DNA from: Acephala macrosclerotiorum
Taxonomy: Eukaryota > Ascomycota > Leotiomycetes > Helotiales > Mollisiaceae
Assembly (NCBI GenBank): GCA_014904845.1
Contig: MU119203.1
Coordinates: forward strand, 851,237-915,236
DNA length: 64,000 bases
Reading direction: 5' to 3'
The notes below the pieces were generated by a model. It saw only the letters and a list, made by a program, of their open reading frames with translations. It had not been told where the DNA came from and did no database searches. This document shows, piece after piece, positions 11,894 to 64,000 of this stretch (positions within the stretch are counted from its first letter, which is position 1; every line of letters starts with the position of its first letter). A program made the position numbers and the translations under genes.

Positions 11894-11931
11894 TGGGTTG
11901 ACTGAAAGTGCTTTGGCAGAACGCGAACGTC

Positions 11932-36448: not shown

Positions 36449-36997
36449 GAAGGGGATGAAAACTTCATGTTTGGGTTACAAGAGATGGGACTTGAATAAA
36501 GGGTGGAATCCGCGTCTCGGGACTTGGTTGAAGAGCAGCATGAGGATAATTATAGCGACTCTCTTGACCGACTTTTTTTCCCCGAGAATGTTCGAGATCA
36601 CGGCGGTGATTGGTGTGGCTGCTGACAGACTCGTGCTGCAGACCGAGTACAGATCCAGCCTCATTGGTCACCTCTCATGCATCTTGGAGACGCAAACTCG
36701 AGCTTATGCAAGCCAATTCTACAATGATGCAATGACAGCACGAGGCTGCCACATTATAGTTGACGAATTATGACCCGCGTCTTCACGATGATGGTTGCGA
36801 CACCGGGTAGAGAGGTGTCTCAGTCGGACACCATCAAGTTTGCTGCGTGTTATTACAAGATGGTTCTCGTCCCAGTTCATCCTTTGTCTTGTTGGTTTAT
36901 AAGATTAGGAACTTCCGCCTTCGGGCCGCATCCCTATTTCGCTGAATCGCTTTCGAGCCGCATCGGTGTGCAACATCCCTGAGCCGCATCGCGAGTC
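36449..36997. other. intergenic, no gene seen
   Basis: Short uninformative frames only. This is the 3' flank of the regulator and the promoter of the following membrane-protein gene. Confidence 0.5.
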
Positions 36998-42939: not shown

Positions 42940-43877
42940 TTGGTGTTCTGGGCAGATCGCTTGTTTGTTGCTCGATAGGTACACTTGAGAGGGCAAAAGA
43001 AGTGGTATCTGATGTCTAATCTGCCCTTCTAACTAAGTGGGGATGCTCCCTTAATAAAGTGATTTCACTGGTGCATCCAGACCAGCCTAGACCGCCCATA
43101 TGAGCCAATGCTCGGTCAAGTGTGCGGCTTCATTTCAACACGAACGATGTCTCAGTGCATTGGCCCCAATACCACCTAATTACGTGATCTCAACTGACAA
43201 CAGTATCTGCTGAGCCTACGTAAGAGACTCACGGGTCTTCTTACAAATATCCTGATAGAAAAGGGATACTAAGACCATTCGTTCTATGGAAGTCTGATGT
43301 TCATTCTCTTCACTGGGCAGGCATCGCATAAGAAGGGTGTTCATCCCGGTCCCGACTATTGAACACGAGCGCAAGTGTGCAAAATTCCCGACTTAACTAC
43401 CGGCATCAGTCTGAAGCTTTACGCTGTTGCTATCGAGCATATGTTTACGCCTGCATGTTCCAATCTGATTCGTGTCGCTCCAAATCGCTTCTTGCTGCCA
43501 AAAGCTTGTTGTATTATCATGTTTTGCTTGGTAACCGCTCCGCATCTGCCTGTTTCTCAGGCGAGAAGCATTATCTCTCGTCTCGTATCAGGTAGATAGA
43601 GTTGCAATGAGAATTAATTCTTAATCATTATCTAATATGTGCTTGAATTGAATATACACGGTGCCAATTTGTGTTGGGATATTAATTAGTGATATCTAGT
43701 TGTTCTTCCCTGTGCACACATGTGCACACGGTCCGAAAGTCGTCGCTCAGAAGGACTTTTGTTTGCGCCATCTGTCGCAGTAACATGCTGCAGCAATCAG
43801 AATGGAGCTAGCTTGTAGCTTCCTAGTTCGAACATATCATCGTTTTGTGATTTTCAATTCCCCCAACTAGGGAAAGT
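42940..43877. other. intergenic between convergent genes, no gene seen
   Basis: Terminator-side DNA of SDA1 and the ankyrin gene. Only short frames occur; CACATGTGCACAC-like direct repeats lie near 43715-43730. Confidence 0.5.
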
Positions 43878-45878
43878 CTAAGCTAACCTGGGAGCCTGGA
43901 AGCCCCAATTTGATTTCTGCGTGTCGCCAAAGGTTCTCTCGCTCTCTCCTGAATCAGCAAGCCAGAATACATCTTCTTCATCCTCTTCAGGCTCCTCTTG
44001 AATTGTTATGTCAAATCCAGCTTTGTTCAATGCGTTGACGTAGGTCATGTAGGCCTCTTCGCCTTCATTTTTGGCGACATCAGCTGGCGTTACTGCTAGA
44101 TTCTCTAGGCCTTCCGGCACTATACATGAAGTTGCCGTCGAGACTATATGAGGGTCGGCGCCATGTTGAAGGATAAGGTCCAACATGGTAGAGCTACCCA
44201 TGCTTGCGGCCTCATGCAGCAAAGTCCAGCCTCGAACATCTTTGTTGTTGATGAAATTCGGCTGAAGATATTTCGCAAGTTCAAGAAATGTCTCCACGTT
44301 CTCGAATCTCACAGCACATCTTATTGGCATCCAGTTCATATGCGTAAGTAGTGTGACAGAGCTTCCTCTCTTGACTAAAGCGGTGACATCGTTTGCGGTC
44401 CCAAACGCCGCTGCTCTATGCATGGCAGTCCAGCCATCTACATCCCGGATATCGAACTCCGAGAATGTCGACGAGGATAGAAGCTCCAAGTATTCAACGC
44501 AAGGGTCGTCTGTTTTATGAATCCATTTGAATCCAAATAAATTGAAAGCAGGCGTCCATCCTTTGGCGCTGATGTGGTCCACTCTCGCGCCTCTCGTGAT
44601 AAAAAGCCTGGCGATGTCGATTTTCCGACTTGCGAATGCCCATTCTAATGGGCTCCTTGAACATAATCAGTATGAAACATTCTCAATGTTGTAGTAATAC
44701 ATACGTCATGAATTGTCCGAATGGTGCGTTGACATCAGCCCCTGAAGCCAGGATGGTTTGGACGAGTTCCTGCGATCCGTTTTCGATGGCATACTATAGA
44801 AATGAGCATGTTGAAAGCCGAATTCCATCGGAGCATACGATACTTACTCGTAGAGGAGAAGAGTTCTGAGGGGTAACATCATTTGGACTCGCCTGCCCTG
44901 TACGGAAAAGCTCCCTGACCGAAAGTACATCACCCTTTTTGCAAGCAGTCATTATCGTTGAATCCTCTGGCACGATATTCTTCACGCTAAGTCCACCAGC
45001 TATAAATGAAAGTCCTAACCCAGCAATTGGGAATCGCCTCAAACGTAGATCTAAGGACACAAGCTTCAGTCCTAGAAGTCGGTGCAAACGACATCTCCAA
45101 GAAAAATTGTACGTCGTTTGATAATCATTTCCATACATTGACAGCACAGCTTCAATGCCTAGAAAATACAGCCATGACTTCTCGAGAAAGACCAAGGACT
45201 TCCAAAACTTGTTCTTGTCGTGGGGATCTCGAGTCGCGAGGCCGTTGAGCACAAGATTTTCTGGTGCCTTCCCTTGCTGAGCGTCCTCTTGCAGGGTTTT
45301 GCGAATAGTAGCAACATCCTGAAGTAAGATAGTGTTCGACGTGATTGCCAGCGACGAAGCAGTTGCGACAGCATGTCTCGATAAATTTGCAATACGGCTG
45401 GTTATACTTTAGCGGATTAAAGTTTTGACGAAAAAGTGGACGGTACGTACAGATTGATGGCAAGCAAGATGGTCTGCAAACTTGTTCGGACTGGTTCTAA
45501 TCGCGACACCACGCCCTTCAATTTTGATTGATCGTGAAAGACCCAGCGCAGACGAGTTTGTTTTTTGACCTTCCCATCTTGCTTGTACTTCTCGCAAGCT
45601 CCTTGGACTTCAAGTATCAAGGTCTCGGCTTCCTTCAGGGCTTTGGATAGATCTTCAACCTCGTTGGGGAGCAGCGCCAAATTATCATCACCGGCTTCTC
45701 CTTGTAGATTGTTGATGAAAGTCAATTCGGACTGGAGTAGGCTGAGTTGACGCGCGATTTGCAGGAATTCTTCGGGAGCGTCTCGAAATCGGCGAACGAT
45801 ATCTGTGGCAGCGGAGCAAGTGATAGCTGCGATTTGGATGAATGTGATAACTGCACTTCCCGAGGCAATTGCCTCCAT
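43878..45878 (-). CDS. HeLo-like N-terminal domain plus ankyrin repeats
   Basis: Exons 45878-45451, 45397-44848, 44793-44705 and 44655-43878 give 614 residues. The introns are 49-54 nt with GT-AG ends and consistent phases. Residues 1-145 (MEAIASGSAVITFIQIAAIT, then a heptad-rich helical bundle) resemble the HeLo-like N-terminal domains of fungal signalling proteins. A linker of about 180 residues follows, with a Gly-rich hydrophobic stretch (AGLGLSFIAGGLS). From about residue 310, ankyrin repeats appear, e.g. DVDGWTAMHRAAAFG and DVRGWTLLHEAASMG. The C-terminus is acidic (EEPEEDEED). Such proteins are linked to heterokaryon incompatibility or programmed cell death. There is no NTPase domain, unlike full NLRs. 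An in-frame ATG 120 nt upstream is less likely as the start. Confidence 0.85.
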
Positions 45879-45998
45879 CGTATCCGTTTCTCTGCTAGTT
45901 GTGTTGTTGAAGAAGTTCTTTTCAACAGGGCCGCCCCCTGTGGAGGTGTGGCATGTCATTTTATTGAGATCGCACAAGATTGAATAGTCGACAACCAT

Positions 45999-47373
45999 AA
46001 AGATACAGATTGGGCCTCATGGAGTGGAAAATTGGGGCCTGTGAAAAAAGGTGTGGGAGGACAGGAGGGCGAGAGGCGACACGAGTAGGCCAGCATTCTC
46101 ATCGATCGCGAGATCGCAGCATTTTCAATGGGTAGGCAGTTTCAGTTTTGAGTGCGACAGCTGCTGTGTCAGTAACCAATCAAGGGTGAGAGCGCATATC
46201 CCGTATATCGCACCCGTGGTAAGTAAAGGTCAAATGTCAATTTAAGTAGAATAGCTATCACTAATCAATAAGTATGAATTGATATCTTGAGTTGAGCACG
46301 AAGCTCTTATTTAATAGAACGAGCGTGGTTATATAGAACTTTCGGCTTATAGATCCCCTGGATCCTTTTTAGATCCTTTGGACTCCTTTGGATCCTCACC
46401 TAGGATTCCAAAAAAAAGTCTATCACGTGATTGATTGCGTGACCTCGCCTAATCCTGTCGCGGCTCGGCGTCCACACGTAAGCCGTAATATTATCCCTTT
46501 TCCGCGTAATTCCTACGTTTAAGTATTTAAAAAAAGTATTATAAAAAAATTTATTTCTATTTTATAAATTTTAATTTAATTAAATAAATAAATTTTTTTT
46601 TTTTTATAATTTCGATAATAAAATTAATTTATTACTTTTTAATATTTGAAAAAAACTAAGCCGAATTAAGTAAATCCAGATAATTATACTAGTTCGCACT
46701 AAGACTATTTATTCATTGAAAACGCTACCAGAACGTGTTTGCTCGCCATTGGCTAAGTATCAAAGGCGGGTTGCACCATTAGCCACCAACATAAATTCCA
46801 ATTCCCTGGCCTCATTTCTGGCGCTCCTTATAAGGCTGAAGGGTTCACGTGCAGTCTGGCAACTAAACTTACTTTTGCACTCTTCGTTTTATCTGCGTTT
46901 CGTTGTAAGCCCTTCAAAACTTCTTAGTCTTATTGAAAAATATCGTGATTTAGAAATTCTTAGTTTTACAAGCATTTCATACCATAGGTTACAGTACTCA
47001 AATGCTCAAGTGATGGTTGGGAGTACGAACTTGCTACCCCGCACTTACTAGAACTGCCTAATAGTAGTGCAAGGCTTAGGCAAACTGCCAGGCAATGTGC
47101 TAATTTTAACAGTTTCAACGTGGTGCCAGTCCAGTCGAGGTTTTGATCTCGCTTCCACCAGACCTGGTAAGTAGTGTCAAGCTGGCCTTGAAGCTTCAGC
47201 CTCGGAGCTTCCGCATCACTCTATAAGTCCTACCACATCCGGTCTGTGTATTGTGACCTGAACGCTGAAGCGCAGATACGATCGAATACCAACCAAGGAA
47301 GCGGCAGTACTCCCTGCTCCCGTCGCCACACACTTGCGCCCGATCGTACACCTAAGGAATTCCGGTAGCCACG
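45999..47373. other. intergenic with repeat relic, no gene seen
   Basis: The upstream region of the ankyrin gene, the A+T-rich relic, then ordinary sequence up to the small Cys-motif gene. No coding sequence is supportable. Confidence 0.5.
46500..46690. repeat. A+T-rich hypermutated relic
   Basis: About 190 bp of almost pure A/T, with several of the remaining C or G bases in CpG, resembles the large block at the window's right end. It follows a stretch (46350-46400) with repeated GGATCCTTT-like motifs. It is probably a small remnant of a silenced repeat; no terminal structure is visible. Confidence 0.5.
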
Positions 47374-47668
47374 ATGGTTCCCGACATAGATCCAAACTCC
47401 AGAAATCGCGACCGTGAGCCTGTGTAAGTTGTCTTTCAGCCACAATACTTATACGATCATGCTTAGACATAATTGGTACAGGAGCTACACCTCAAAGCCA
47501 TGCTCCAAGTGTGGTGGAAACTGCACCGCTGGCGGTTGTACCTCCGGAGGTCCATATACCACCAACGAAGACCCGAAAGACAGCTACAATGCTTATGAAG
47601 CTGAGAAAAGAGATAGAAATTCCAAACAAGGGCACTCTAAGAAAAATGGTGATCGCAAACACAAATAG
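47374..47668 (+). CDS. small protein with CxxCGGNCxxGGC motif
   Basis: Exons 47374-47423 and 47482-47668 give 78 residues. The 58-nt intron (GTAAGT...GGTACAG, phase 2) restores a frame that begins MVPDIDPNSRNRDREP. The centre has CSKCGGNCTAGGC, four Cys in a Gly-rich setting that could bind a metal or form disulphides. The C-terminus is Lys/Arg/Asp/Asn-rich, ending in DRKHK, with no signal peptide or membrane helix. The good splice signals and a clear stop support a real gene. I do not recognise the family. It is isolated between repeats and long gene-free DNA, so it may be lineage-restricted. Confidence 0.6.
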
Positions 47669-49849
47669 TTCCATGCGTATTCTTATAATGGTAAGAAGTC
47701 TTGTGACTCGAATCTTGTGACCGTATCTAATGATTAAGTTTGTTATGCCACCAGGATCAGAAGTAAGGTGTAAGGGGCTCATCTGGAAAGGATACCGTTT
47801 GTACGAGTCTGTATGAGTCAAGATTTTGGTGGTATTGTCCTGTACTTGGCTCAGTACAGCTATTGGGTTCTGAGGTATACACGTGACATTTTGGGAAAGG
47901 ACATCGTGAACACAAGAAGGACACGAGATACAATGTTTCCATGATAAGTGAAGTTTGTTATGAATTATATGGAATATATGTCAATCCTTGGTATCGCGAT
48001 TTGATGTGACGACTAGAGGAGCAAATTCGCCTAAAGCTAAGTTTGCCTTGGCCCTGAGAGCTGTCCCTGGTTAGGTTACACCCTAGTGGAATTTGACATT
48101 TGATATGGGTTAATGTTGAAATTCACCCGACATTTTATATCACGATGGTCAATGACCCTCTTCCTATGATGTGTCCTCAAATGCGGATGATCGATTGTCA
48201 AACCTCCTTTACTCTCAAGTATTTACCTTATTATCTCATTTTCACGTATGAGCACAAGAGCTGTACTCCGGTATCGTATCTTTTTTACCCACACTCCTTG
48301 GATTTCAATACCTGCTTTTGTTGCTAAGTCTTACTTTGCTTTCAATCGTTTATGTGTATCTGTCAGTGGGTGCTTTAGGTCCAGGCTCCAGCGGGTCACA
48401 TACTTGAAGCTCACATATAGCCCAAGCACAAGTGTAGAGAGTTCTTGCTGTTAGTACTGTCGTCTTCTTCCCCAACAAGGCCATCATCCTCAGCCTCCTC
48501 TATGCGATCATGTCTTCATATGAGAAAGCAAAGCTTCTCTATGTCCATCTTCAAACCCAACCCATTACGTCCATGTACTAGCGTTCCTTTCCTTTGACTC
48601 ATCTTCCTTCCTTCTATTCATAAAACAGCGAGTACAGCGACTAGCTTAAAGCGCGCTTCGTGCCCCGCTTTGAACGATCAAACCTACATTACCTTACTTT
48701 CTTTTATATTACAAGCTGGTGCTGTGGTCGCACGGGCGCAACAACGAATAACACGCCCTTGTCCTGGAAGATTCTCGCGCTTCTGAACTGGAACGAAGGG
48801 GATTGCATTGTTTGAGAATGTGGGACATGCGAACCTTGTTTAATCCACCGTCAAGGCTTGTGCGGCTGCGAACAAATGTCAGACGAGTGTTCTACTTCCC
48901 ATCCAACATCTCTCGCAACTGTCACGAGCAGTATCGCTGCGAACTCAGCCGAATATTCTACTTCCCATCCGATAATTGTCACTAGTAATGTTACTGCGAA
49001 CAATTCTCAGACGAATCTCCAATCTCAGGAAGCTTAGAAGCAAAGGAAGATTTTGACGGTTTGACACTGAATTTGGCAGCAATGCAAGACCGTGGATCGG
49101 CCTCAAGTTGTCGCACCGGTGCTAAGGCAGAAATGTGGTTGTGCTGTGTTGATGGTTATAGTTCGTTAAGGGCGAGAGATGTAAGATTATTTATAGGTGC
49201 GAAAAGAGGGTCAAAATTCATGACTCATTGTTAATCGTTGGGACTAAGATGTCGTGACTTTGCTAGAAGCGTCGAGTTTCCGAAGATGAGTAGTGAATTG
49301 GAAGAGGATGAGTCAAGCTGTCGTGGGATAGCTTGAGCAGCTGCAAGGCTCGTCATGTCTTCAAATTAGTGAGGAGATTGAGATATGGATCTGAAAGGTG
49401 AATAAGGTGAGTGCGGGGCACAGGAGGCGAAAGTTTCCACGAGAATACATATTTAACATGAATACTAGATGTGTTCACGTGAAAGAAGCTGTATATACTG
49501 GGTATAAGAAGACCTTCTTGGTCATGCAAAGCAAACGACACAACAATCACAACATGGATGTTCCGGGTCAAGGGAGATGAAGACAGGTGGTTTGTTGCTA
49601 CGTACTCCGTGTGGTTCCTTCGTTGTGCTCGATCGGGGTCTTCCAAGGGCTATGCTGTTACTGGGAGTAATTGCTTTAGGACCACCTCAGAGTTCTTGGT
49701 CTTTCGCCTATGAGCGTTGATAGCAAGTTGAGAATGATGACAACAATGATCTCGGAAGAGAAGAATCTCGGCTCCCGGGCCGAGCCGATCAGTCTGCGCA
49801 CATCGGTTTCATCCCCTACCCCACTTCAGATCCTTCCTCTCCTTGCAAC
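47669..49849. other. 2.2-kb interval with decayed coding-like repeats
   Basis: No full gene. Imperfect repeats at 48860-49037 are described separately. The end is the promoter of the TPR gene. Confidence 0.5.
48860..49037 (+). repeat. diverged tandem repeat, Ser/Thr-rich in one frame
   Basis: CTGCGAAC recurs at about 48866, 48937 and 48994, and TTCTACTTCCCATCC occurs twice (about 48890 and 48956), marking units of about 57-71 bp. One frame, from an ATG at 48876 to TAG at 49035-49037 (53 codons), reads Ser/Thr/Asn-rich with repeated STSHP. That resembles the stalk of a wall protein. It may be the remnant of such a gene or chance. Confidence 0.4.
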
Positions 49850-51535
49850 ATGGACGACAAGCTACCGCTTCCCGTGTCCTCGCGGGATGAATACTACGAC
49901 CTTGGGTCTTACTTCCGGCCTATAACAACCAAAAGCAAAGACGCGCAAATATGGTTCGGCCGAGGCCTCATCTGGAGCTATGCCTTCAACCACGAGGAAG
50001 CCGCGAAATGCTTCGAGAACGCCATCTCCAACGACCCGCAATGCGCAATGGCATACTGGGGACTTTCATACTCACTTGGACCGAACTACAACAAGCCGTG
50101 GGAAGTCTTTGATGAGGATGAGATAGTCACTAGCGTCAATCGGACACATCATGTTGTCATGCAAGCAAAAGAACATTCTGCTGCTGCATCACCAGTTGAG
50201 CGTGCTATCATAGATGCGCTTCAGTTTAGGTACCCGAAAGAGTGGCCAGCGAAAGAATTCTCGATGTGGAATCAGCAGTACGCAGAAGCGATGGAATCTG
50301 TGTACAAAGACTTCTCAGATGATCTTGATGTGGCGGCACACTATGCTGATGCGTTGATGAACCTCACGCCATGGCAGCTGTGGGATTTGACCTCTGGGAA
50401 ACCAGCTGAAGGAGCGCGTACTATGGAAGCAAAGATAGTTCTCGACCACGCCTTATCTACGGAAGAAGGACTCCGGCATCCAGGTCTCTTGCATCTCTAC
50501 ATTCACCTCATGGAGATGTCAGGCACACCTGAGACCGCTTTGACCATAGCCGACCACCTACGAGGTCTCGTCCCAGATTCTGGTCATCTGAATCACATGC
50601 CAACTCATCTCGACATCCTGTGTGGAGACTACCGACGAGCAATTGCCTCGAACTCAGATGCAATTCTTGCCGATGAGAAGTTTCTTGCTCGCGACGGGCC
50701 GCGGAATTTCTATACATTGTATCGATCTCATGATTATCATTTCCGTATCTATGCTGCCATGTTCTCTGGGCAGTCGAAAATTGCTCTGCAGACTATTGCA
50801 CAGTTGGAAAATTCTATTCCGGAAGATTTGCTACGTGTCAAGTCTCCTCCGATGGCGGACTGGCTGGAAGGTTTTGTGAGCACAAAGATACATGTCCTTG
50901 TTCGATTCGGACTCTGGCGGAACCTCATATATCTCGAACTTCCACAGGACCAGCAGCTTTACTGCGTCACTACGGCGATGATCCATTACGGGAAAGGGAT
51001 TGCTTTCGCAGCCACTGGACAGGTCTCGGAAGCAGAAAGTCAACGAAAACTGTTTCTCGAAGCAGTGAAGCGTGTACCGGATTCTCGCACACTGTTCAAC
51101 AACACATGTATCGACATTCTGGCCATCGCTTCAGCCATGTTAGATGGAGAACTTGCCTACCGCCAAGGGAACTACGACCTCGCGTTCAACAAACTCCAGC
51201 AATCTATCAAACTTGATGACAGCCTGCCCTACGATGAGCCTTGGGGTTGGATGCAACCTACCCGCCACGCATACGGTGCTCTTTTACTCGAGCAAGGAGA
51301 AGTTGAGAGAGCGGCGAAGGTATATGCCGCTGATCTTGGATTTGACGATACGCTGCCAAGGGCATTGAGACATCCGAATAACGTTTGGGCGCTGCACGGG
51401 TATTATGAATGTTTGATGAAGCTGGGACGGACGGCGGAGGCGAGGATCGTGGAGCCGCAGATGAGGTTGGCTGTTGCTGTTGCGGATGTGCGAATTAAGG
51501 CTTCTTGCTTTTGTAGGTTGAAGACGGAGGGTTAG
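49850..51535 (+). CDS. TPR-repeat protein (fungal, unknown role)
   Basis: A single exon of 561 residues, starting at an ATG with context CAACATGG. Several tetratricopeptide-like helical pairs are visible, for example AFNHEEAAKCFENAISNDPQ near residue 45 and ALLLEQGEVERAAKVYAADL near residue 475. Between them lie conserved-looking His-rich stretches (LLHLYIHLMEMSG, then DSGHLNHMPTHLDI) and the segment SHDYHFRIYAAMF. There is no signal peptide or membrane helix. Homologues in fungi and bacteria are annotated only as TPR domain proteins. The His-rich centre hints at a metal site, but that is inference. It stands alone, with no visible partner. Confidence 0.85.
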   Translation: MDDKLPLPVSSRDEYYDLGSYFRPITTKSKDAQIWFGRGLIWSYAFNHEEAAKCFENAISNDPQCAMAYWGLSYSLGPNYNKPWEVFDEDEIVTSVNRTHHVVMQAKEHSAAASPVERAIIDALQFRYPKEWPAKEFSMWNQQYAEAMESVYKDFSDDLDVAAHYADALMNLTPWQLWDLTSGKPAEGARTMEAKIVLDHALSTEEGLRHPGLLHLYIHLMEMSGTPETALTIADHLRGLVPDSGHLNHMPTHLDILCGDYRRAIASNSDAILADEKFLARDGPRNFYTLYRSHDYHFRIYAAMFSGQSKIALQTIAQLENSIPEDLLRVKSPPMADWLEGFVSTKIHVLVRFGLWRNLIYLELPQDQQLYCVTTAMIHYGKGIAFAATGQVSEAESQRKLFLEAVKRVPDSRTLFNNTCIDILAIASAMLDGELAYRQGNYDLAFNKLQQSIKLDDSLPYDEPWGWMQPTRHAYGALLLEQGEVERAAKVYAADLGFDDTLPRALRHPNNVWALHGYYECLMKLGRTAEARIVEPQMRLAVAVADVRIKASCFCRLKTEG

Positions 51536-52221
51536 GGAATAAGGGATCATAGGTCTTGATGGATGCTTCCTCTCAATCTGTCTGATGCGTTTCACTCTCA
51601 TCATTTCAACAGTCTCATGACAAGCAACTATCTCCATAGTTGAAAGCCAGTAGCATCAATGTTTGCTTTGGAAAGTCTCAATCGACATCGCACACTGTTC
51701 TACAATGTTGTTGAAGAGCTTTGAGTTCTTCACACTCATAATCCTCTTCGACGTTCATCTCACATGTATCATTTGCTACACGCCGTGCTATGAGCATTAC
51801 CTATGTATTTTTTTCTGCGCACGCCGGATTCTGGCCCCCACCTTCAGCCCTTCACCTCACCGAAATGCAGCATTAACCCCGCATCAACATCATGATCATT
51901 GGATGCAAGTGCGAGCTCACCGAATTCCTTGCTGCTTCTCAATATTCTTACTTCCGCGATTCATTCGCAAGTGCTGGTGATGTTCGGTGTGGCGTGCGGA
52001 TACCGTAACCGGCAGGATTCGAGGCTGAGTCGACGTCGCGCGGAACCTCACCACCTCTCCTCGCATAGTGCCTCCTCAAAGATCTGCCTTCTCAAGACAA
52101 GACAGACTTTGGAATCTTGACTCAGTACCGCCTTACACTTCTCCAGTTCCTCTCAAACTTTCATTTTCTCTTTTCGCTCAAGTCATCAATCAGAAAATAA
52201 CCTTCAACTCAATCAGCCAAG
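51536..52221. other. intergenic/promoter, no gene seen
   Basis: Pyrimidine-rich leader DNA of the next gene; no supportable coding sequence. Confidence 0.5.
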
Positions 52222-53404
52222 ATGGGATACACACATTACTGGGATATCCTAAGCGTCGAGAAATACACAGAGGAATATGAGCAGTTGATCAACGACACGA
52301 ATCTGATTATTGAGCTTGCTGATATCCCTCTTGAGGGATGGGGGGAAGGAGCTACCAGTATCGCAAAACCGGACCATGGATTTGGAGATGATGGAAACCT
52401 GGTGGGTGAGGAGTTGGGTATCGGTGGGAATAAAAGTAATGTATTTGAAGAAGTGAAAGGAGGTGATGGAAAGATGGATGGGGGTGTGAATGAAAAAGAG
52501 GATATGGCTAAGGGAAAAGAGGGTTATGTCGAGCCCGTGCCCGGGGAGGAGCTGGCCTCTGAATCGAAGAAAGATACAACACCCAAAACGCCCAGCACAG
52601 CAACCTCTAATCCAAAAGTTTCAAACATAGAACTGAAGGCCCATGGCACTCCCTACGCATCACTCGAACGCGGAATCTTCCTCAACGGCCTCGGATCCGA
52701 CGGCCATGAAACCTTCGTTCTACCCGCGCCAAAGAATCTAGAAGATGAAGATTACAGCTGGCGGCTTGGGGGTGGCCCAGGAGGGTTCTGTAAGACGGTT
52801 AGGAAACCGTACGATTTGGTTGTTTGCGTGGTGTTGATGAGAGCGAAGATGCTGATGGGTGAGGGGTTTAACTTTAGGTTTGTTTCTCCTCGTCCTCCCT
52901 CTCCCAATTCTCAATCCATTTCCCTTCAAAGGTAGTATGGAAATTCGGGAAAATATCTAAGCTAACACGATCACAAGTTCTGATGGAGTCTTCGACTTCG
53001 ATAAAGAATGGATTGCAGCCCGAGAATTCTACGCTCAACTATGGCCCGAAGACTGCCTTACAGCTGAGAAAATCGGCATGGAGGCGTTGTCTGAAGAGCG
53101 GATTAAAGAGATGGAATCGAGATACGGACCGTGGGCTGATGAAAGATGGGTGGGAACTATGTTTATGAAGGAGGTTCTCGGGCCAATGCAAGCGGTGTTG
53201 AATGCGATGATGAGTGGGGAAGGAGTCAGTGAGGAGCATTTGGAGTGGTTGAAAGGGCCGTTGCCGGATCTGACTCCCAATCGAGCAGAGAAGGACGACG
53301 AAGGGTGGGATGAGGGTTTGAAAGGTCAGAATGAGAATGGTGGAGGAGGAAAGGAAGACAAAGGCCCCGAGGGGTATGTGGGGTGGGGCCCGTGGGCAAT
53401 GTAG
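52222..53404 (+). CDS. unknown protein starting MGYTHYW
   Basis: Exons 52222-52877 and 52978-53404, with a 100-nt intron (GTTTGT...CTAAC...CACAAG, phase 2), give 360 residues. It opens with MGYTHYWDI, a conserved start also seen in some bacterial and phage hypothetical proteins. Residues ~40-135 are acidic and low-complexity (Gly, Glu, Lys). A folded-looking C-terminal half follows: LNGLGSDGHETFVLPA, then KTVRKPYDLVVCVVLMRAK, and FDFDKEW after the splice. The end is a Gly/Glu-rich acidic segment. No catalytic motif was recognised. It converges with the HET-domain gene; the two stop codons are only 23 bp apart, so transcripts may overlap. Confidence 0.8.
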
Positions 53405-53427
53405 AAATGCAGGGTTTAGATTTTTAG

Positions 53428-55137
53428 CTACCATAATGAGATGAACTTGGTTTTGGGTCTAGCTAAAAGCCAACTTGAGAATGGAATCTTGCAACGCATC
53501 GTGTTTACTCTGAACATCTTCTCGTTGACCTCTTCATAGCACATCAGGATCGTGATCACCGGCTCCTTTTCCTCTTCTCCCCGAACAGCATGCACGACGA
53601 AGAACTTCAAATCATCACCGTGTTCCTCTCTCCATTTCCTGTCAAGGTTGATCTTCCCATACACAATTGATTCGTCCTGTATGGAAGAAACATTGAAATC
53701 TTCAGAGGTCGACACTGAATCCCGCCCGCTGATTGAGGCAGACGGACTGACTCTCAACGTTGCGGTACTAGCTTCGAACAAGATATTTGCGGAATGCGAA
53801 TATTCGCCCCAACTCCTCGGCAGCAAGGTCTCACTCTTGAAACTCGCCCACGGACCATTAGCCCTCTCATGCGTGAGTCTGATCAAATCACTTGTATACC
53901 AATACCCATTTTCTCCTCCCGCATGCTCATAGCTCACTTCCTGCTGCCACCCTACCCAACTCCAGCTCGGGAATTCGAGACGCCGTAGAGAAGGTCGGTG
54001 TGTTTTGACGGACCAGCAGAATGCGAAATCGAAGGCTGAAACGGGCAGGCCGTAGGTGAATGTGTTGCTCTTCTGATTCAACGTCGTGAAGAGGCCTTGA
54101 ATCCCGGAGAAGGCTTTCAGGGCATCGGATTGGAAGGAGAGATTTCGTGTTGAGTATTGCTCCACTAACCTCGTGTACATCACGAGCTCTGAGTCTGGAT
54201 CCAGAATCGGAGGATCTGGTTGAGACTGTGGTTGTGTGTCAAGGGAAGGACGAGGAATAAAAGTCGGAGAGAAGAGAGAGGAGCTGCACCGGAAGAAAAT
54301 GGTGTGCTTGGTGAAGATGAGCATCCGTGTTGAGAGGACTTTCTCTTGGAATGTCCAGCCTCGAGTATCCCATTTGCATCCCTTGATCTCTTTCTCAAAT
54401 TCTTCATCAACATCTACTTCCATCTTCTCACCTTCCCTTTCTTCGCTTAGTAGCGAAGTCAGAGCAAGTCCAGCGTCAGCGTCGTCCCCCGCAGCAGCAA
54501 CGATCGTCAATACAGCACCACGATAAATTCTTCCCATACGACCAATTTGCCACATCTTGTCGCGTGGACTATCTTGGATGATACATAGGGTATCAACCCA
54601 AAGGTATCTCTCTCCTAGTTCTCGACAGAGGGAGATGGCATCGGAAACTGTTTTTGAGATCCTGGTCCCAAGGCCTTGGTCGTCTGTTGAAAGCGCACCT
54701 GGAGTCTTAAAGGCCGAGAGAGTTCTCTGGACTAAATGGAGCTGTTTTGTTTGCCCCCATACCTATTTAAAGGGTCAACCCTCATTGAAGCGGTGTATAT
54801 AGAGATATATTGTCTTTCAGTCCCCGTTTAGAAGGTGAGGAGGGTTGAGGTGATACGTGTACAAAGATAAGCACCTACATAGCTAAGCGCAACATACCTC
54901 TCCCCCTTCCTCGCATCTACTATGCACATTTGATCGACGTCAATAACTCTGATCCTACTCACAGCACTACTCGTCAACGGATCATCGAGAGGGGTATGCT
55001 TGCACGTGATCTGATGATTCCGTTCGCAGGTTGAGCGGAAGGAGCGGAGGAGAGGGACGTTGTGCTGCATTGTTCGATTTGATTTGGGTGTCTAGGCGAA
55101 TAGCTAACATACATACTTGATGGTCAGAGAGGGACAT
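53428..55137 (-). CDS. HET-domain protein (heterokaryon incompatibility)
   Basis: Exons 55137-55117, 55064-54879 and 54762-53428, with introns of 52 nt (GTATGT...TGCAG) and 116 nt (GTAGGT...AATAG), give 513 residues. The HET blocks are all present: YVALSYVWG (formed by splicing), RYLWVDTLCIIQDS, IYRGAVLTIVAAAGDDADAG and RGWTFQEKVLSTR. A divergent C-terminal region with the common FPSWSWVGW motif follows. HET domains are TIR-like and trigger cell death on non-self recognition. The frame continues open upstream of 55137 to about 55314 without an ATG, so a 5' exon may exist; I use the first in-frame ATG. Motifs are intact, so function is plausible. Confidence 0.88.
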
Positions 55138-55696
55138 ATCTACGAAAGCGAGGCTGTGCAAAGAAAGATCACGCTCGGTGAATTCGGTGAGAGAGATGGG
55201 ATGAAGGGTGGGGTTAAAAGGTTGCCTGCCTGGGACAAAAGTTCGGATGTTTGAAAACAAAGTTGTCGATTGGTTGTGTAACTGGAATTGAATGTAGTGA
55301 GCGCCGGTGACAGTTTAAATGTTTACTATTTAAAGGGCCATTCTGAAGCTGAGAATCTGCGGACCTGGCTAGGCGTTTAGTGCCACTTGGCAGCGGGGAA
55401 AAAAAAATTTCTCGTAATGCAAAGGGAAGATGAAAACTATCGAGGAAATCTTAGAACTAATAGTTAGCTATATCTTATGATATCCACTCCATCTCGCTCG
55501 TATAACGAAGGCAAGTCATGTTCTGTCCATTACAACTTGTCATTATTTCGTACCAATTGATAGCAATCTAGGTATCCAGTTTCATTCCCAACCTCGCCAA
55601 CTAAACGCACGCTTTGCAAATTACCCTTCACCTCACTGCATCCCCCTACAACCATGCGCACCGCGAACCCCTTCTCAACGCTCGCGTACAGGCTCG

Positions 55697-58600
55697 CTAC
55701 TTCCTCCCCCTAACAGGGCTCTGCGCAAACCTAATTCCCCTACTCTTCGCCACCGGCGGCGGCACCCTCGGCGTATCGTCATCATCGCTATCCTCTCCGC
55801 CTCCACCTGACACACCAAGCGCAGCCTCTCTCCTCCTCCTTTCCGCCGCGGACTCCTCTATTGCTCCATCACTGCCACTCCCTCTTCCGCTCCCACCACT
55901 CTCCTCATCAAATCTCGATTCCGATCTTCCGCGTCCAAGCTGTGCGGGTGTAACTTCGTCCACTCCTTTGAGAGCTTGTTCGCGTCTCCTCCTCTCGGCC
56001 TCGGATTCCGGCATATCGTTGGAGGGGTGATTCACGTCCGGTATGGCGCGCATCCTGGCGTTGGTATTTGCAGACGAAACGTGAGCTTTCTTCGGTCTCG
56101 TCACGACCCTCTCTTCACCATCATCTTCACTATCACTCATAGGCGACTGCCCCCTCCCTTCCTCATCCACCCTCACCCCCCTATCCCTTGCCATCTTCGC
56201 ACCAACAGCCTTTGCCGTTTCTCTTCCTGAAGCACGCTCAACGCCCGTGGCGCCGAACAGGCGTGAGCTGCCAGGAGAGTCCTGACTCGCGTCCTTCTTC
56301 GCAAGATCCTTCATCGCCGGACTCGCATCACTCCCAGCAACAACCTCGCACCTAGCCTTCGGATCCAAACTCTGAATCTCCTTCAAAAAATCCTCTTTCG
56401 TCAACCTCTTCCCTGCACCACCAATCGTAAACCTAATATGTCTATCATCCTCCGCATCATTATGTCTCGGCGTCCCTTCTTTCCCCGTATTCTTACCGCC
56501 GAACCCCCAGTTGAAGCTTGGTTTGGTGGAGGATTCAGCTTCGGCTTTTGGAGTTTTGGGATCCTCGGGTTTGTTGTCTTTCTTCGGGCCGAGACCGGTC
56601 CAGGTTGACATTCGGGTTATACCTTGGCGGACTGGGTTCGTGCTGGTTTCGCCGGAGTTGGAGGGGTCTTGGGATTTGGTGGTTTTGGAGGAGGGCAGTT
56701 CGTAGGTCTTTACTACTTCGCCATCTTCGTCTTCGACGATGATCTGTTTGTGTTTAGCTATGGGTTTGGATAGTAGGTAGTAAGGGGAGTGCTCACGGTA
56801 TTTCCAAATTGATATGCCAACGCAGGACCTCGCTTTCTGTGAGCCTGCTTTCCTTTCTCTCCATTATCACCAACAGGTTCATCTTTATGTCTCCACACAC
56901 CAAGCTTCTTTCTCAAATTTTTGTAAGCTTGCATTGGGTGCTCGACATCATCCTTGATTTCCTTCTCTGCTTTCGCCAAAGACTCCTTCCTTTCCTTGGC
57001 ATGCGAACTGATCTTAGTACTCAGAACCTCACCATCTGCATCCTCGATGATAACATCATCGCCCTCCTGGTACACATTGGTGTCATCTGGGTGACGTTCG
57101 GCATCGGATCTATGCTGGTCGCGCGTCTCATGATCTGAATGTCGGTGCAATATTTCGTGCATCTCAGGGTCATCTTGCACATCTCCGAGAGCGCTCTCCT
57201 TCCTCTCATCGTCATCGTCCTTTTCATTCATCGGCAAATTCTCTGGAGAGTCACCCGGTGTCAAAGTATCGGACGTCTGTTCGCTCATATGCTCACTCTG
57301 GCTTCGGCGCTGAGGATAGATGGCAGATTGACTGATAGGTCCACCAGGTCCACGACCATCATCCCATCTCTTCTTTCGGCGATGACGTGAAATTAGAGAA
57401 GATGCTCTACTTCCTGGTGCACTGTTGCTGTCTTCTTCTTTCTGTCGACGTAAGAACTCGCGAGGAATACCAGTCGGTGGCAATGCTCCTGGTGGCAAAC
57501 CTTCCATCTTCATGTCATCGGCATCAGTCTCGGAAGCAAATGACTTCGCTTGTGATCTCGAGGTTGATGAAATACGTGGAAGTCTGTTCAGCCAGCTTGG
57601 TCCATCGACATCGGTTGTGTACGACATGGTGAGGTGGAGCGTGTTGATGTGCTTGCCAAGCGTGAAAACAGCGATGGATGATCCGTGTACCAGAATCGAG
57701 GAGATGACTAGGAAGGTAGTGATTGGCCAGATGACAGTAACGAGTTCCCAGTTCTCAGCGCCCAGGTCGGGATAGGAGGCGAGTGGGGTGCTATGGCCCG
57801 TTTCCAATTCAGCTCTGGCAAGGATGGCGACGAAGATTGCTCCGACGCCAATTGGACCGAAATGGCCTGCGAATAGAGCTTCTCGCCAAGTTTTGACATC
57901 CGGAATGATCGGTTTGAGTGCCATCATGATTGGAATCCGACGGAACAGAATGACGAAGATAGCGAGTATGACCAGCCTCCATACAGTCAAACCAATGGCG
58001 TGGTTGTTGTACTGCTCCCAAGGAATGATTGTGCCTAGATAGACGAAGTATGCCAAGTTGATGAGCAGATCAATAACGTTGGAGACGTGAGACTCTTCAG
58101 TCTTTTGCGTAAACCAACCATCGTTAGAGAAACCCACTCCAGCAGCGAAACCAACCAGAAGGTCATCAACACCGAGGATACTACCTGATCCAGCACAGAA
58201 GAGTGCCAACACAAAGTAGAACACGAGAAAACTTTCTCTGTCGACAAGATCATGCTTTTCAGCATACTTGATCCCATGCCGTCCAATGTATCCAATCATG
58301 AAGCCATAGAATGCACCGAACACACATTCGTATAGAATGGTGATAACGAACCAATTCAAAGCAACCTTGTCCGCATCAGGTCTGTAGTCGATGAGGTACA
58401 GGGCTAGATAGATGAAAGGGAAGGCCATTCCATCATTGCAGCCAGACTCGGCAGACAAGACATCTCTCAAATGTTTTGGCACCCGCTTGGCGAACTTGCC
58501 CTTTCCCACAACCGAACTGGCCAAGACAGGATCCGTAGCAGTGACGCAAGCAGCGCAAGTAAGAGCCTGAAGCCAATTGATCGCAGGAACCATCCACCAA

Positions 58601-58962
58601 ATAAATAGACTCGTCATCAACCATCCGAACGTCATGACGGGAAGCAGTAAGAATACCACACTCCTCCAATGTTTCTCCATGTAGTATTTTGGCAGTTCGA
58701 CTCCGACGGCGAAACATTGGACGACGAGGACGATTCGCGAGAATTCGAGGGTGATTTGATCGGTATTTCCCCATGTTCCAGGGTTAATCAGGTTCGCGGC
58801 GTGAGGACCGAAGATAATTCCACAGAGCGTGGCGACTGTCGCTTCACCGATGTACAGTCGTTCCTTGATGAACGACGAACACAGCATGAACAGTGAGGTG
58901 AAGCCGCCAAGGATTATGTAGACCAGATGCGGTCGATTGATCGAGAGGTGGTCCCACGCCAT
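55697..58962 (-). CDS. NHA1: Nha1-type plasma-membrane Na+(K+)/H+ antiporter
   Basis: Exons 58962-56797 and 56743-55697, joined across a 53-nt intron (GTGAGC...AACAG, phase 0), give 1070 residues. Residues 1-440 hold about 12 membrane helices of the CPA1/CPA2 type. They include VTATDPVLASSVVGKGKFA and LSAESGCNDGMAFPF, the ion-binding ND region, and GHFGPIGVGAIFVAILAR. About 630 residues of cytosolic, charged, low-complexity tail follow. Splicing joins QFGNT to IIVEDEDGEVV, so the downstream frame that could be mistaken for a separate gene is the tail. It contains two related motifs, ESEAERRRREQALKG and EESAAERRRREAALG. Nha1 exports Na+ and K+ for protons, regulating salt tolerance, pH and volume; its tail is regulatory. 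Confidence 0.93.
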
Positions 58963-60228
58963 CTTGGCTCAGTCTTGTGTATCCTGGGAAGCTTGTGAGA
59001 GGCTTGGTGGCTCGAAGGTCGGTGGGCCGTATGACCGCGTATGGATTCGAAATGGTATCGGCAGAAATCTGCAGGCCGCTGCCTTCTTTCAAGGCCCAAT
59101 TCCCCAGTCTGTCGATTCCCTTAACAATATTGCGTGGTGCCGGAGCATTCAGACACCGGTCGCGCCCAGTCGCCGCTCCCAACAACTAAAGAATGTTTGT
59201 TGACCTCCACGACGTCCCCAGCAGATTCGTAGGTAATGATCGGAAGTCGTCAGGGTGAGGATATAAATATTCTAGGGCGTTATCGAGTCGATCGACATAG
59301 ATTGATAGGAGATGGCGGGGTACGGAAGATTTAAAAGTTGTGACGAATGTTCACAATCGGAATCTTTAGGCTTTTTTTTTTAGCAGGTGGGCTAGTACTC
59401 TTCTTAAACCAACGAAGAAACAACAGCCAAGACCGCCAAAGACGAATAACAAATGGATTCTTACCGACCAAGAGAGTCCAAGGCGTGACAGAGAAGAATG
59501 AGTGAAGATAATTGGGGTTTGCACTCGAGCGTGGAGAGAATCTGCGAGTCCGGGTCTTGGTGCGTGGGGACAGAAAGAACCAGCAGGGAAGATGTCCGAT
59601 GAGGTGACTGTGCATGCAGTGGCACGGCCTGGAATATCGCCTTTTCTTTCCGGTACAGCGCACAAAGGACGATTGTCTAGAAGATGTCGAAGTATTTTCT
59701 CTAGGAACGTGCATATACGTCTCCATCAACCCCTATTTATTATACTTTTTTCTATTTTATTTTTATCAGTTCTGCTTGTTCCAATCTCATCCTCGCCGCC
59801 TCCTCGCAAATATCGACCAGGCGTCCTTGCATAATGACGTATCATTGGCCCAGTGCATTATTCTGCCAAGCCACAACCAGCCATGTTTATTGCCTGATAT
59901 GGTTTCCGTGCCCGTGATATCAGCCACAATGAGGGCGGTGAGAGGGGTCCCTAGACCCGCCCCGAGGCGCCCCCAACTCAGAACGGCACTTCACTTCTTT
60001 CACTTTATGGCCACGACTCCTCACGAATTGGTGAGATCAAGATCTAGACGACACAATACAGCACCTAGCAGCTGAAGTCAGCATGCGCAAGCAGATGGAA
60101 AGCTGACTAAGGTTACTCCTAGCAAGTCCTTCCAGATGGATATGTAGCACGGAAATTCCCCACAAAGTTGCGCTGTACGTTTATCGTCGTACGGCTGCGT
60201 TGTTGTGTATCTCGATGTCGTGGCAAAC
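58963..60228. other. intergenic, no gene seen
   Basis: The promoter side of the leftward antiporter gene and of the rightward Zn2Cys6 gene. It contains a run of T (59371-59380) and no supportable coding frame. Confidence 0.5.
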
Positions 60229-61873
60229 ATGCTTCAGTCGGGTACGGACAAGGGTAAAACGAAGAGGGCTTCGGCTCCGAAGAGTCGGAATGGATGTCAA
60301 ACTTGTAAAGTGTGTCTCAGTTGCCGAGTTCCTTGGGTTCATGTATCACGAGTTCTGACTTGATAAGGCAACACGAGTGAAGTGTGACGAGAATCACCCA
60401 GCAGTAAGTGCATGTCTACAACCAGGTCCTCGGGTCTGCTCTAACGCCTCCGAGTGCAACATGTGTCTCAAATCCAACAGACAATGTCAATGGAAACAGA
60501 AGCAACAAAAATCTCAGCGAATCCTCATACCTCAGAGCACAAACCAAATCAACCAAGTCCGGCCTTCAGAAACACTTCACTTCATCGACCCAAGAGAAGC
60601 AAGCTACTTCAAGGCCTACCAAGAAGAAGCTGCTCCCGAGCTATCCGGGCTTCTGAGATCCTCAGTCTGGAGTTACACAATCCTCCAAGCATGTTACCAA
60701 GAACCTTTCGTCCTTCGAGCTGTGGTCGCAGTTGGAGCCCTGAACAAAGCTATCAAGACCGAATACCTCGCCTCTATCAATCCTCAAAACTCGGCTGTTG
60801 CCCTGGCACAACGGCATCGAGCATTTGCTCTCGCTTCCTATGACCGCGCCCTCTTCGGAATGAAGCAAATCACTCCTGAACCCAAAAAATCTTCCTCGCT
60901 TCGGAAAGCACTCCTCGCCTGTCTTCTCATCTACTGCATCGAGAACTTCCTCCAATCCCCCAACACCGCCTTCATACAATCCCAAACTGGTTACTCCCTC
61001 CTTCAACAATGGATATCCTCGAAATTCTCACAAAACCTCGGAATCGAATCCCCGGACTCAACCGCCATCGAAGACGACATATTCCACGAATTCGCACGTA
61101 CAGATCTCCAACACGCCATCCGCTGGGGCGAACACGCCCTCACCCGGCACTCAACCCGTCGCCTTGAAGGCACCCTCACAATAAAAAATATGCCTACCCG
61201 CTTCTCCCACTTAGACGAAGCGCGCGTCTACCAAGAACTACTCATGCGAAGAACCTACCACCTAATCGGCGAGACATACGCCAGGATCATAGCAGCGAAA
61301 GATGAGATTAGACATACATTCGCAAGCGACACTCCCGGCGAGCTCGTAGATCCTTGTTTCCTCCCCAAAATCCTATACCCAGACCGCGATCAATATCTCC
61401 AGGACATCCGGCATTGGTGTGAAGCCTTTCAGCCCATCTTCCCCAAACTCCTTCGCTCCCCCAACCCCCTAATCTCCTCTGGCGCAGCTTTACTTCGATT
61501 ACATATGCTCAATGCAGAAATCAGATTAGCAGGCGCATTCTTCATCCTCGAAACGGATTTCGATGAATATCATAAGCACTACAAGGAGATAGTGAGTTTA
61601 TCAAGACATGTGGCGAGGAAGACGGAGCAGTTGTATCCTAGAGATCAGCCCACTTTTTTGTTTTCAGACGGAAGCGAGAGGCCGCTTTGTGATGTCGCAC
61701 TCACCTGCCGTGACAAGACTATCAGAGAAGATGCTCTAGCGGTGTTGAGATCAACGGCTCATAGGGATGCTACCAAGAATCAGGCACGCATGATCACACG
61801 AGCTTCCTTCCTCGTCTCCCTCGAAGAGTCTGCCCGTCTCCCAGATGGCACCATCCCCGAGACCTCTCGGTAG
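60229..61873 (+). CDS. Zn2Cys6 transcription factor, cluster assembled by splicing
   Basis: Exons 60229-60309, 60368-60403 and 60455-61873 give 511 residues up to a TAG. The introns are 58 nt (GTGTGT...GATAAG) and 51 nt (GTAAGT...CTAAC...CGAG), both phase 0. Only the doubly spliced form gives a canonical cluster, CQTCKATRVKCDENHPAC followed by NMCLKSNRQC, spacing CX2CX6CX6CX2CX6C. A helical fungal-type regulatory region without a clear fungal_trans signature follows. The 51-nt intron is stop-free and in frame, so retention would insert 17 residues and spoil the cluster. The frame stays open for 98 more codons after the TAG (see next entry), so the annotated end is probably a nonsense mutation. 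The target is unknown. Confidence 0.8.
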
Positions 61874-62170
61874 CGTCTAGTCTGGGTCCTAAACCACTAC
61901 CGAGAAGAGAAAAAACATCTCACGTTAATAGCAGTCAAGAGACTTGGCTTCCCGATTGGGAAGCAATACCCAGCCAGAAGAGAATATGCGAGGAGGACCT
62001 TTACACAAGAGGAAGCTGAGAGTATGAATTGCACGCCTTGGAAAAAGGAGACGCACTTTGCGTATTGGCCGCCGCCAAGGATATTGAGTTTGCCCAGGCC
62101 TTTGCAGTGGAGAGCTATTTATGATGAGATGTTGGGTGTTGAGAAGGGGGAGAGGACACGGTTTGGATGA
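61874..62170 (+). pseudogene. in-frame continuation of the Zn2Cys6 gene after a TAG
   Basis: Directly after the TAG at 61871-61873 the same frame runs on for 98 sense codons to a TGA at 62168-62170. It is protein-like: VWVLNHYREEKKHLTLIAVK, then GFPIGKQYPARREYARRTF and a Trp/Pro-rich end, the usual style of this regulator family's C-terminus. I infer that the ancestral stop is at 62170 and that the TAG (Trp or Gln originally) arose by a TpG to TpA or CpA to TpA change. It lies about 470 bp from the hypermutated block. Stop-codon readthrough or a sequencing error are alternatives. Confidence 0.6.
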
Positions 62171-62344
62171 TGTTTGGATGAGAATAGCTGGTTGTTTAAC
62201 CTGAATCCTCACTTGCACGAAATCTGTTTTTGTTCGGAAAAGTGAGCAGGGCTGCTTTATCGGCCATACTGGGTAAGCTGAGGTAAATAAGGGTAAGGCG
62301 AAAGTGAAAAGTGGGTAAGCGATGGTAAGCAAAAGTAGACGGCG

Positions 62345-64000
62345 GCAAGGATTAGCTTGAGTATGCGTTGAGAGCTATTTTAACGCTTAAAAAAGCTCGT
62401 TTTAACTCTTTCAAAGCCCGGTTACACTTTTTTTGTTTTATTTTTAAGCGCAAATCCTATTTTAGCTTCGATTAAAAAATTTTTAAAAACTATTTTTAAA
62501 TTTATATTCGTTTATATATACGTAATAAAATTAAATAATTTAATTTTATCGTTTTATAATGTTTTTTTAACGTTTTAAAAGCGATTTTATATAATATTTA
62601 AATTTTTTTTTTTATTTTAAATATTTTAATAATAAATTTATAAATAATAAAATCGTATTAAAAATTATATTAATATTATTAAAAAATTAATTAATAAAAT
62701 TAAATAAAATTACGTTTTTTAAACGTAATATTATTATTATATAAATTTTTATTTTATTTAATTTCGATTTAATTAATTTTATATTATTAAAATTTATATA
62801 TTACGTACGTAATTTTTATTATTTATATATAATCGAGTTTTTTATTTAATAAATTATTATTTGAATTATTATTTATATTATATATATTTTTATAATAAAT
62901 ATTATTAATTTTTAATATAATTTTTTCGTAATATTAATATTATATAAATTTTTATTTTTATTTAATTTATATTTAATTAATTTTTTATTATTAAATTATA
63001 TTAATAATATAATTTTTTTTTAAAAAAAAATTAAAATAATATTTAATTCGTATTATTATTTAATATAAAACGAATTAAATCGTATAAAAAAAAATTTTAA
63101 TAAAAAAAATTTAAATTAATTTATAAAAATATATATAATAATATAAAAATTTTTTTTTAATAATTATTACGAATAATAATATTTTTAATTTATATTATAT
63201 TATAAACGTTTAAAAGTATTTTAATATTTTATATTTTTAAAAAATAATATTTTTATATATTTTCGTATTATAATTTAAAATTTTAATTAATATAATATTA
63301 TTAAAATTAATAATAATTAAATATATTTTCGTTTTATTATTCGATTAAATAATATTTAATACGATTTATATTTCGTAAACGTATTTTTATTTTTTTTATT
63401 TTTACGTTTATTACGTTTATTTTATATTCGATTAAAAATAATTATTAGTTTAAATTTAATTTATATTTATTTAACGATTTAAATTTTAAATTTTGAATCT
63501 TTAATTTAAACGTTTTATAAATATTTAAAATTAAAATAATTATTAAAATAAAATTTTAAATAAAAACGTATTTATTATAAAATTTTATATTAAAAAAAAC
63601 TTTTTAAAATCTCGTTTTTATATTTAATTATTTAATTAATTTAAATTATTTTATTTAATATATAATTTTAAAAAAAAACTTTTTAAAATTTTTTCGAAAA
63701 TTATATAATTGTAAAATAATTTTTTAATATTTTATTATTTAAATACTAAATACTTAAAATAAAAACGTATTTAAAAATTTTTTATAATCGCGATTTTTAT
63801 TAAATATAATTATATTTTATTAATTTATATAATAACGAATTAATAAAATCGTTTAAAATTTAAAATTTAAAAATATTTAATTAATTTTCAATTTTTTTAT
63901 AAATTTTATACAATTTAAATTAATTAATAAATAAAAATTATAAACGTAATTATAATCGCGAAATTTTAATATTTTTTATTAAAACGATTATATATTATTT
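62345..64000. repeat. extremely A+T-rich hypermutated block
   Basis: From about 62.35 kb to the window end, and probably beyond, the DNA is nearly all A and T. By eye, almost every remaining C or G sits in a CpG, as in ACGTACGT near 62812 and TCGCGA near 63790. CpA, CpC, CpT and their complements are almost absent. There are no coding frames or recognisable transposon domains. This looks like the end state of RIP-like C-to-T mutation of repeated DNA that spares CpG. The left border is a gradient across about 62340-62480. Confidence 0.85.

What the first reader, a model, noticed from the sequence alone, without database searches (positions are those of the whole stretch)
62345..64000. A+T block in which C and G survive almost only as CpG
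Seen directly: nearly all remaining C and G in about 1.65 kb are in CpG dinucleotides. Classical RIP in Neurospora mainly converts CpA to TpA and leaves other contexts. Ordinary methyl-C deamination removes CpG first. Here the opposite pattern holds, suggesting a mutator acting on all non-CpG cytosines, or long-running RIP with a CpG-sparing preference. That would be an unusual context specificity.
Basis: partly seen in the sequence, partly recalled or inferred. Interest (0 to 1): 0.75.

Follow-up and report, generated by a model that had tools for sequence, protein, structure and literature searches.

The report
Fungal repeat mutation that spares CpG
This fungal DNA seems to have been bleached to almost pure A and T by the fungus's own anti-transposon mutation system, which here hits cytosines in every setting but only rarely those followed by G, so that the few C and G letters left stand mostly in CpG pairs.

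Summary
In the A+T core (62,461-64,000, GC 6.7%, running to the contig end) 42 of 52 C and 42 of 51 G are in CpG; shuffles average 1.7 CpG, at most 8. The genome is Acephala macrosclerotiorum, with two RID-type methyltransferase genes, a DIM-2 homologue and two further DNMT genes. In 34 of 34 A+T tiles from other contigs, 23-67% of C+G lies in CpG; this block (82%) is the extreme. Three ungapped copies of one repeat differ only by transitions; polarised C>T rates are CpA 13.9%, CpT 7.8%, CpC 7.2%, CpG 2.2%. So this is most likely saturated repeat-induced point mutation (RIP) in which CpG is the least used context. Simulation with the measured rates leaves too few CpG (24 against 42; 1 of 300 runs), so sparing was stronger here than in the young copies. 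Orders in print differ: N. crassa CpA>CpT>CpG>CpC, T. reesei CpA~CpG (passage). Why CpG is spared is not known.

The parts
62461..64000 (.). A+T core (GC 6.7%) in which 84 of 103 C+G are in CpG; read as DNA close to saturation by CpG-sparing RIP; ends at the end of contig C2
   Evidence: RIP indices TpA/ApT 1.04 and (CpA+TpG)/(ApC+GpT) 0.107, against 0.63 and 1.27 in the flank
62345..62460 (.). transition zone from GC-normal DNA to the core
   Evidence: 100-bp windows fall from GC 0.38 (62,341-62,440) to 0.11 (62,461-62,560)
1..62344 (.). GC-normal flank (GC 0.487, CpG o/e 0.87) used as the unmutated reference in counts and simulations

Best explanation
[quoted passage not shown] The RIP spectrum of this fungus turns C into T (G into A on the other strand) before A, C or T several times more often than before G. 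After many rounds nearly all CpA, CpC and CpT are gone while about half of the usual CpG density remains, so C and G survive almost only as CpG. Shown here: the composition; CpG excess in all A+T tiles examined on other contigs; transitions only, mostly in non-CpG contexts, between long repeat copies; presence of RID-type, DIM-2-type and further DNMT genes. Inferred: that RID, perhaps with DIM-2, does this in this species; that the block itself was once repeated; the reason for the sparing. Of the possible reasons I favour a preference of the mutating enzyme against CpG (about 60%) over repair of T:G mismatches at methylated CpG (about 30%).
For: Polarised C>T in three ungapped copies (L030, L031, L032): CpA 93/670, CpC 38/529, CpT 66/842, CpG 17/779; CpG against CpA, CpC, CpT: P 8e-18, 2e-5, 1e-7. 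Transversions: 0 in 230, 171 and 235 differences. Older pair L011/L020: 4 transversions in 781 differences, CpG again lost least. CpG o/e 2.8-22 in 12 of 12 A+T blocks, found in 9 of 14 stretches of other contigs; 34 of 34 tiles with CpG share 0.23-0.67. RID-type, DIM-2-type and other DNMT genes. Short MITE-like copies in the same genome do not show it: transitions/transversions 31/28, 41/47, 47/41.
Against: With the measured rates and their uncertainty, simulation leaves 24 (12-34) CpG where the core has 42, reached in 1 of 300 runs; the core needs a CpG rate 0.3-0.4 of that measured. The young spectrum predicts CT+AG about three times CA+TG, but 24 of 34 tiles have CA+TG at least as high as CT+AG. 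I could not show that the block is a repeat: the copy search did not complete. Rates rest on one element family. 58 singletons in the T>C direction, 46 of them in L031, were left out of the polarised counts; in the unpolarised pair counts CpG is also lowest. No methylation or cross data.
Confidence: 0.85

Rival explanations
1. Two phases: an early RID-type phase (CpA > CpT, CpC) and a long later phase in heterochromatin, perhaps tied to DIM-2, that prefers CpT; both avoid CpG. This refines the best explanation.
For: In the older pair L011/L020 CpT loss exceeds CpA loss (pooled 305/485 against 180/340, P 0.005; singly P 0.06 and 0.03); simulated site-to-site rate variation under the young spectrum gave T/A ratios up to 1.02, against 1.25 and 1.55 seen. 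A switch from the young to the L011 spectrum gives CA+TG and CT+AG like the other tiles. DIM-2 of N. crassa prefers CpT (PMC13297926 and PMC8016269 passages).
Against: Different element families, one pair only; partly circular, since some tiles come from L020. The window core itself (CA+TG 6, CT+AG 13) does not look like the late phase. In Z. tritici Dim2 acts at CA, hardly at CT.
Confidence: 0.35
2. All cytosines are mutated alike, but T:G mismatches at methylated CpG are repaired back to C:G, so CpG only appears to be spared.
For: In Z. tritici CG sites are preferentially methylated yet not mutated at high rates, and the authors suggest better repair at CG (PMC8016269 passages). This genome has two further DNMT genes besides RID and DIM-2 types and three UDG-family (PF03167) matches. 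Sparing is stronger in the core than in young copies.
Against: No methylation or repair data. UDG-family genes are widespread (13 of 14 control genomes). An enzyme preference explains the counts as well.
Confidence: 0.28
3. Ordinary CpG methylation with deamination, or a CpG-type RIP as in Microbotryum or of Masc2 type.
For: A BAH-domain DNMT with the ENV triad is present; about half of the CpG density is missing in the core.
Against: CpG is the context least mutated and is in excess.
Confidence: 0.03
4. Organellar, foreign or misassembled DNA at a contig end.
For: The block lies at the contig end and has very low GC.
Against: 12 blocks with the same CpG excess in 9 of 14 stretches of other contigs, some of them internal; GC falls gradually at the boundary.
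Confidence: 0.02

Closest known systems
RIP of Neurospora crassa (RID-dependent, with a DIM-2-dependent branch)
   Same: Transitions only in long repeats, CpA most used in the young copies, A+T-rich relics; RID-type and DIM-2-type genes present
   Different: Published order CpA>CpT>CpG>CpC (PMC5496416 passage); here CpG comes last and CpC equals CpT
RIP in other Leotiomycetes (Phialocephala subalpina, Botrytis, Sclerotinia, Monilinia)
   Same: P. subalpina has two RID-type, one Dim2-like and one Masc2-like gene and CpA/TpG under-represented in repeats (PMC5148876 passages); CpA and CpT signatures in Botrytis and Sclerotinia (PMC4352252 passages)
   Different: Monilinia is described with CpG to TpA double mutations (PMC8959702 passage); I saw no statement of CpG sparing in the passages read
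Dim2-dependent mitotic C>T mutator of Zymoseptoria tritici
   Same: Non-CpG cytosines of repeats mutate while CG does not mutate at high rates (PMC8016269 passages)
   Different: There the target is CA; here CpC and CpT are hit too. Its dependence on Dim2 was tested there, not here
CpG-type signatures (Microbotryum, Masc2-type genes; also Trichoderma reesei, CpA~CpG)
   Same: C>T in repeated DNA
   Different: CpG is a main target there; here it is the least used

Membership tests
RIP (repeat-induced point mutation) | C>T and G>A transitions, nearly no other change, between copies of long repeats | tested here: met
   0 transversions in 230, 171 and 235 differences; 4 in 781
RIP (repeat-induced point mutation) | RIP indices TpA/ApT at least 0.89 and (CpA+TpG)/(ApC+GpT) at most 1.03 | tested here: met
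   core 1.04 and 0.107; flank 0.63 and 1.27 (thresholds as in PMC2621366)
RIP (repeat-induced point mutation) | RID/Masc1-type methyltransferase: PF00145, PCQ, and EQT in place of ENV | tested here: met
   frames on C158 and C45; nearest named relative P. subalpina PAC_01402, 66%, called RiD-like in PMC5148876; EQT rule from PMC6709928 passage
RIP (repeat-induced point mutation) | CpA is the preferred context | tested here: inconclusive
   met in the three young copies (CpA against CpT P 2e-4); reversed in the older pair L011/L020
RIP (repeat-induced point mutation) | acts on repeats above a length limit; short repeats escape | tested here: inconclusive
   three copies of a 275-bp MITE-like repeat show no transition bias; one family only
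RIP (repeat-induced point mutation) | the window block is itself a repeat | tested here: inconclusive
   no similar stretch among fetched loci; the genome search was unanswered
RIP (repeat-induced point mutation) | depends on RID and happens before meiosis | not testable with these tools
   needs crosses
CpG methylation decay or CpG-type (Masc2, Microbotryum) mutation | CpG lost first | tested here: not met
   CpG mutated least and in excess in the A+T blocks
Dim2-dependent mitotic mutator | mutation in vegetative growth that needs Dim2 | not testable with these tools
   a DIM-2 homologue with a 1,659-codon open frame is present

The most novel reading that the evidence does not exclude
In this fungus CpG dyads are actively kept while the other cytosines of repeats are erased: RIP, or repair coupled to it, turns transposons into A+T deserts whose cytosines are nearly all in symmetric CpG sites, that is, in the sites at which maintenance methyltransferases (the BAH-domain DNMT on C55, or the methyltransferase-SNF2 gene on C139) could carry heterochromatin methylation forward. 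Mutation would then silence the element for good and leave it markable. Sparing would grow with age (CpG rate in this block 0.3-0.4 of the young-copy value), pointing to methylation-guided protection rather than enzyme preference alone.
Probability: 0.15. Interest if true: 0.65.

Novelty: new variant of a known kind. Interest (0 to 1): 0.38.

Why it matters
RIP context is usually summed up as CpA. A genome in which CpG is clearly the last context, with two RID-type genes, a DIM-2 homologue and two further DNMT genes, offers a natural test of what sets RIP specificity: the enzyme's target recognition or repair at methylated CpG. In practice, CpG excess inside A+T blocks could serve as a marker of this kind of RIP beside the usual CpA-based indices.

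Tried and rejected
Considered and rejected: CpG methylation decay, CpG-type RIP, organellar or foreign DNA, assembly artefact (see rivals). Spectra taken from young copies alone do not fully account for this block nor for the CA+TG level of the other tiles; spectra from L011/L020 and a two-phase mixture suit the other tiles better but not this block. CpG-sparing RIP followed by pure CpG decay left 0 (0-3) CpG at the core's C+G and does not fit. Site-to-site rate variation did not reproduce the CpT-over-CpA order. Rfam: no family in the window at gathering scores. PDB: general DNMT1 and other cytosine methyltransferase matches for the RID frame, and for the DIM-2 frame a strong match to 9bap and 9baq, listed only as DNA (cytosine-5-)-methyltransferase. 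UDG-family search: three matches, not decisive. The N. crassa-like proportions simulated are recalled, from no call. Masc2-, DNMT5- and Rad8-like are names by analogy or recalled; no tree was made.

Papers: 15 were opened. I saw passages only, except the outline and section 9 of PMC12543289. Figures and supplements were not seen. I do not claim that CpG-sparing RIP is absent from print: ten searches of open-access full texts listed papers of which I opened only some.

Full report
What is there. The window is the last 64 kb of contig C2 of a 69.66-Mb, 778-contig genome. The DIM-2-like protein on contig C4 (873,132 bases) matches at 100% a protein of Acephala macrosclerotiorum on a contig of the same length, and the RID-like frame on C45 (315,240 bases) does likewise, so the genome is that of this helotialean fungus, called an ectomycorrhizal ascomycete in PMC7550596 (passage). 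GC is about 0.47 in the last 100 bp before 62,340, falls within about 120 bp to 0.11 and stays low to the contig end.

The observation. In 62,345-64,000, 47 CpG stand against 3.1 expected from composition; in the rest of the window CpG o/e is 0.87. In the core 62,461-64,000, 42 of 52 C and 42 of 51 G are in CpG; 10,000 shuffles gave mean 1.7, maximum 8. CpG density is 27 per kb in the core against 52 in the flank: about half of the usual CpG is missing too.

It is not confined to this block. Of 14 stretches of 10 kb on other contigs, chosen by me and mostly contig starts, 9 hold 12 A+T blocks, all with CpG o/e from 2.8 to 22. Of 28 fetched loci (L010-L037) cut into 1,540-bp tiles, without tiles holding N and without the ends left over, 34 tiles had GC under 0.20; 23-67% of their C+G is in CpG, median 49%. 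The window core, 82%, exceeds all 34.

Which sites mutate. Three copies of an element with an RVT_1 match (L030, L031, L032) align over 2,586 bp without gaps and differ pairwise by 230, 171 and 235 transitions and no transversion. Taking the state shared by two copies as older, the third shows C>T at CpA 93 of 670, CpC 38 of 529, CpT 66 of 842, CpG 17 of 779; 58 singletons in the T>C direction (46 in L031, the copy with the highest GC) were left out. CpG differs from each other context (P 8e-18, 2e-5, 1e-7); CpA exceeds CpT (P 2e-4); CpC and CpT do not differ (P 0.68). Unpolarised pair counts agree that CpG is lowest. An older pair (L011/L020, 4 kb, GC 0.28 and 0.18; 4 transversions in 781 differences) again loses CpG least, but there CpT loss exceeds CpA loss. 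As a control, three copies of a 275-bp MITE-like repeat, one of them in the window, show transitions and transversions in about equal numbers (31/28, 41/47, 47/41). PMC4522978 likewise reports ten MITE families of another fungus without dinucleotide bias (legend passage).

Does that spectrum make the block? I let GC-normal window DNA decay at the measured rates until C+G equalled that of the core. Median CpG left: 23 (25 starting from L031); with rate uncertainty 24 (12-34). Flat, CpA-only and N. crassa-like spectra (the last from recalled proportions) left medians of 1, 4 and 6. So sparing of CpG is necessary. The other tiles lie at or above what the measured rates give, roughly at CpG rates 0.6-1 times that measured; the core (42 CpG; 1 of 300 runs reached it) needs 0.3-0.4 times, a CpH:CpG ratio of about 11-15. 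Also, 24 of 34 tiles have CA+TG at least as high as CT+AG, which the young spectrum does not give; a switch from the young to the L011 spectrum does. Site-to-site rate variation did not produce the reversal. These are small samples from different element families, and I keep the two-phase idea as a rival that refines the main reading.

Machinery. Of 12 PF00145 matches on 7 contigs, five loci were examined: a DIM-2 homologue on C4 (open frame of 1,659 codons; PF00145, DUF7893, a BAH match just under its cut-off), two RID/Masc1-type genes on C158 and C45 (PCQ and EQT read from the frames), a BAH-domain DNMT on C55 (PCQ, ENV) and, on C139, a methyltransferase frame (ENV; at motif IV it reads CDD, not PCQ) followed by a frame with an SNF2 match. 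Two weak matches with a stop inside, on C174 and C153, were not followed. P. subalpina is reported with two RID-like, one Dim2-like and one Masc2-like gene (PMC5148876 passages); the C45 protein is 66% identical to its PAC_01402. Three UDG-family matches exist, which says little.

Against the literature seen. PMC5496416 gives CpA>CpT>CpG>CpC for N. crassa and CpA~CpG, CpT>CpC for T. reesei (passage). PMC4352252 links CpA and CpT signatures with RID-type genes and CpG signatures with Masc2-type genes (passages). PMC12543289, on 1,239 fungal genomes, concludes that RIP-like defences share a preference for CpA (section 9). Monilinia is described with CpG to TpA double mutations (passage). Anisogramma repeats have CpG 2.8 times rarer than control, with CpA and CpT mutations dominant (passages); that absolute drop is not far from the twofold drop here, so absolute CpG loss alone would not set this fungus apart. 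The closest precedent for spared CpG is the Dim2-dependent mutator of Z. tritici, where CG is methylated yet not mutated at high rates (passages).

Verdict. Observation confirmed. It is a variant of a known kind. Open: why CpG is spared, and why this block is purer than the young spectrum predicts.

Noticed in passing
window 24811-25092: MITE-like element of about 275 bp with imperfect terminal inverted repeats; relatives at L019:3446-3721 and L023:4107-4391, about 68-77% identical in BLAST, with transitions and transversions about equal. Searches for further copies were unanswered.
   Followed up: partly
window 24731-24790: Six head-to-tail units of 10 bp (aaagtggaac and aaagtggaaa) just before the MITE-like element.
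   Followed up: no
window 46521-46660: Short A+T patch (GC 0.05-0.06 in 120-bp windows) inside GC-normal DNA, with only one CpG per window; too short to test for CpG excess.
   Followed up: no
G000 contig starts: C12, C19, C24, C160, C246, C285, C343, C633: Eight DDE_3 (PF13358) matches begin within the first 70 bases of a contig (of 100 matches), as if a repeat of this family marks many contig ends.
   Followed up: no
L011:1-3988 and L020:4335-8325: Losses differ by strand: where L011 keeps C or G, L020 has 373 G>A against 228 C>T; where L020 keeps them, L011 has 142 C>T against 34 G>A. This would fit RIP events that favour one strand.
   Followed up: no
L037:4476-8690 (contig C139): Methyltransferase frame (PF00145, 51 bits) with CDD in place of the PCQ triad, followed by a 1,123-codon frame with an SNF2 match; possibly of DNMT5 or Rad8 type (recalled names).
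   Followed up: partly
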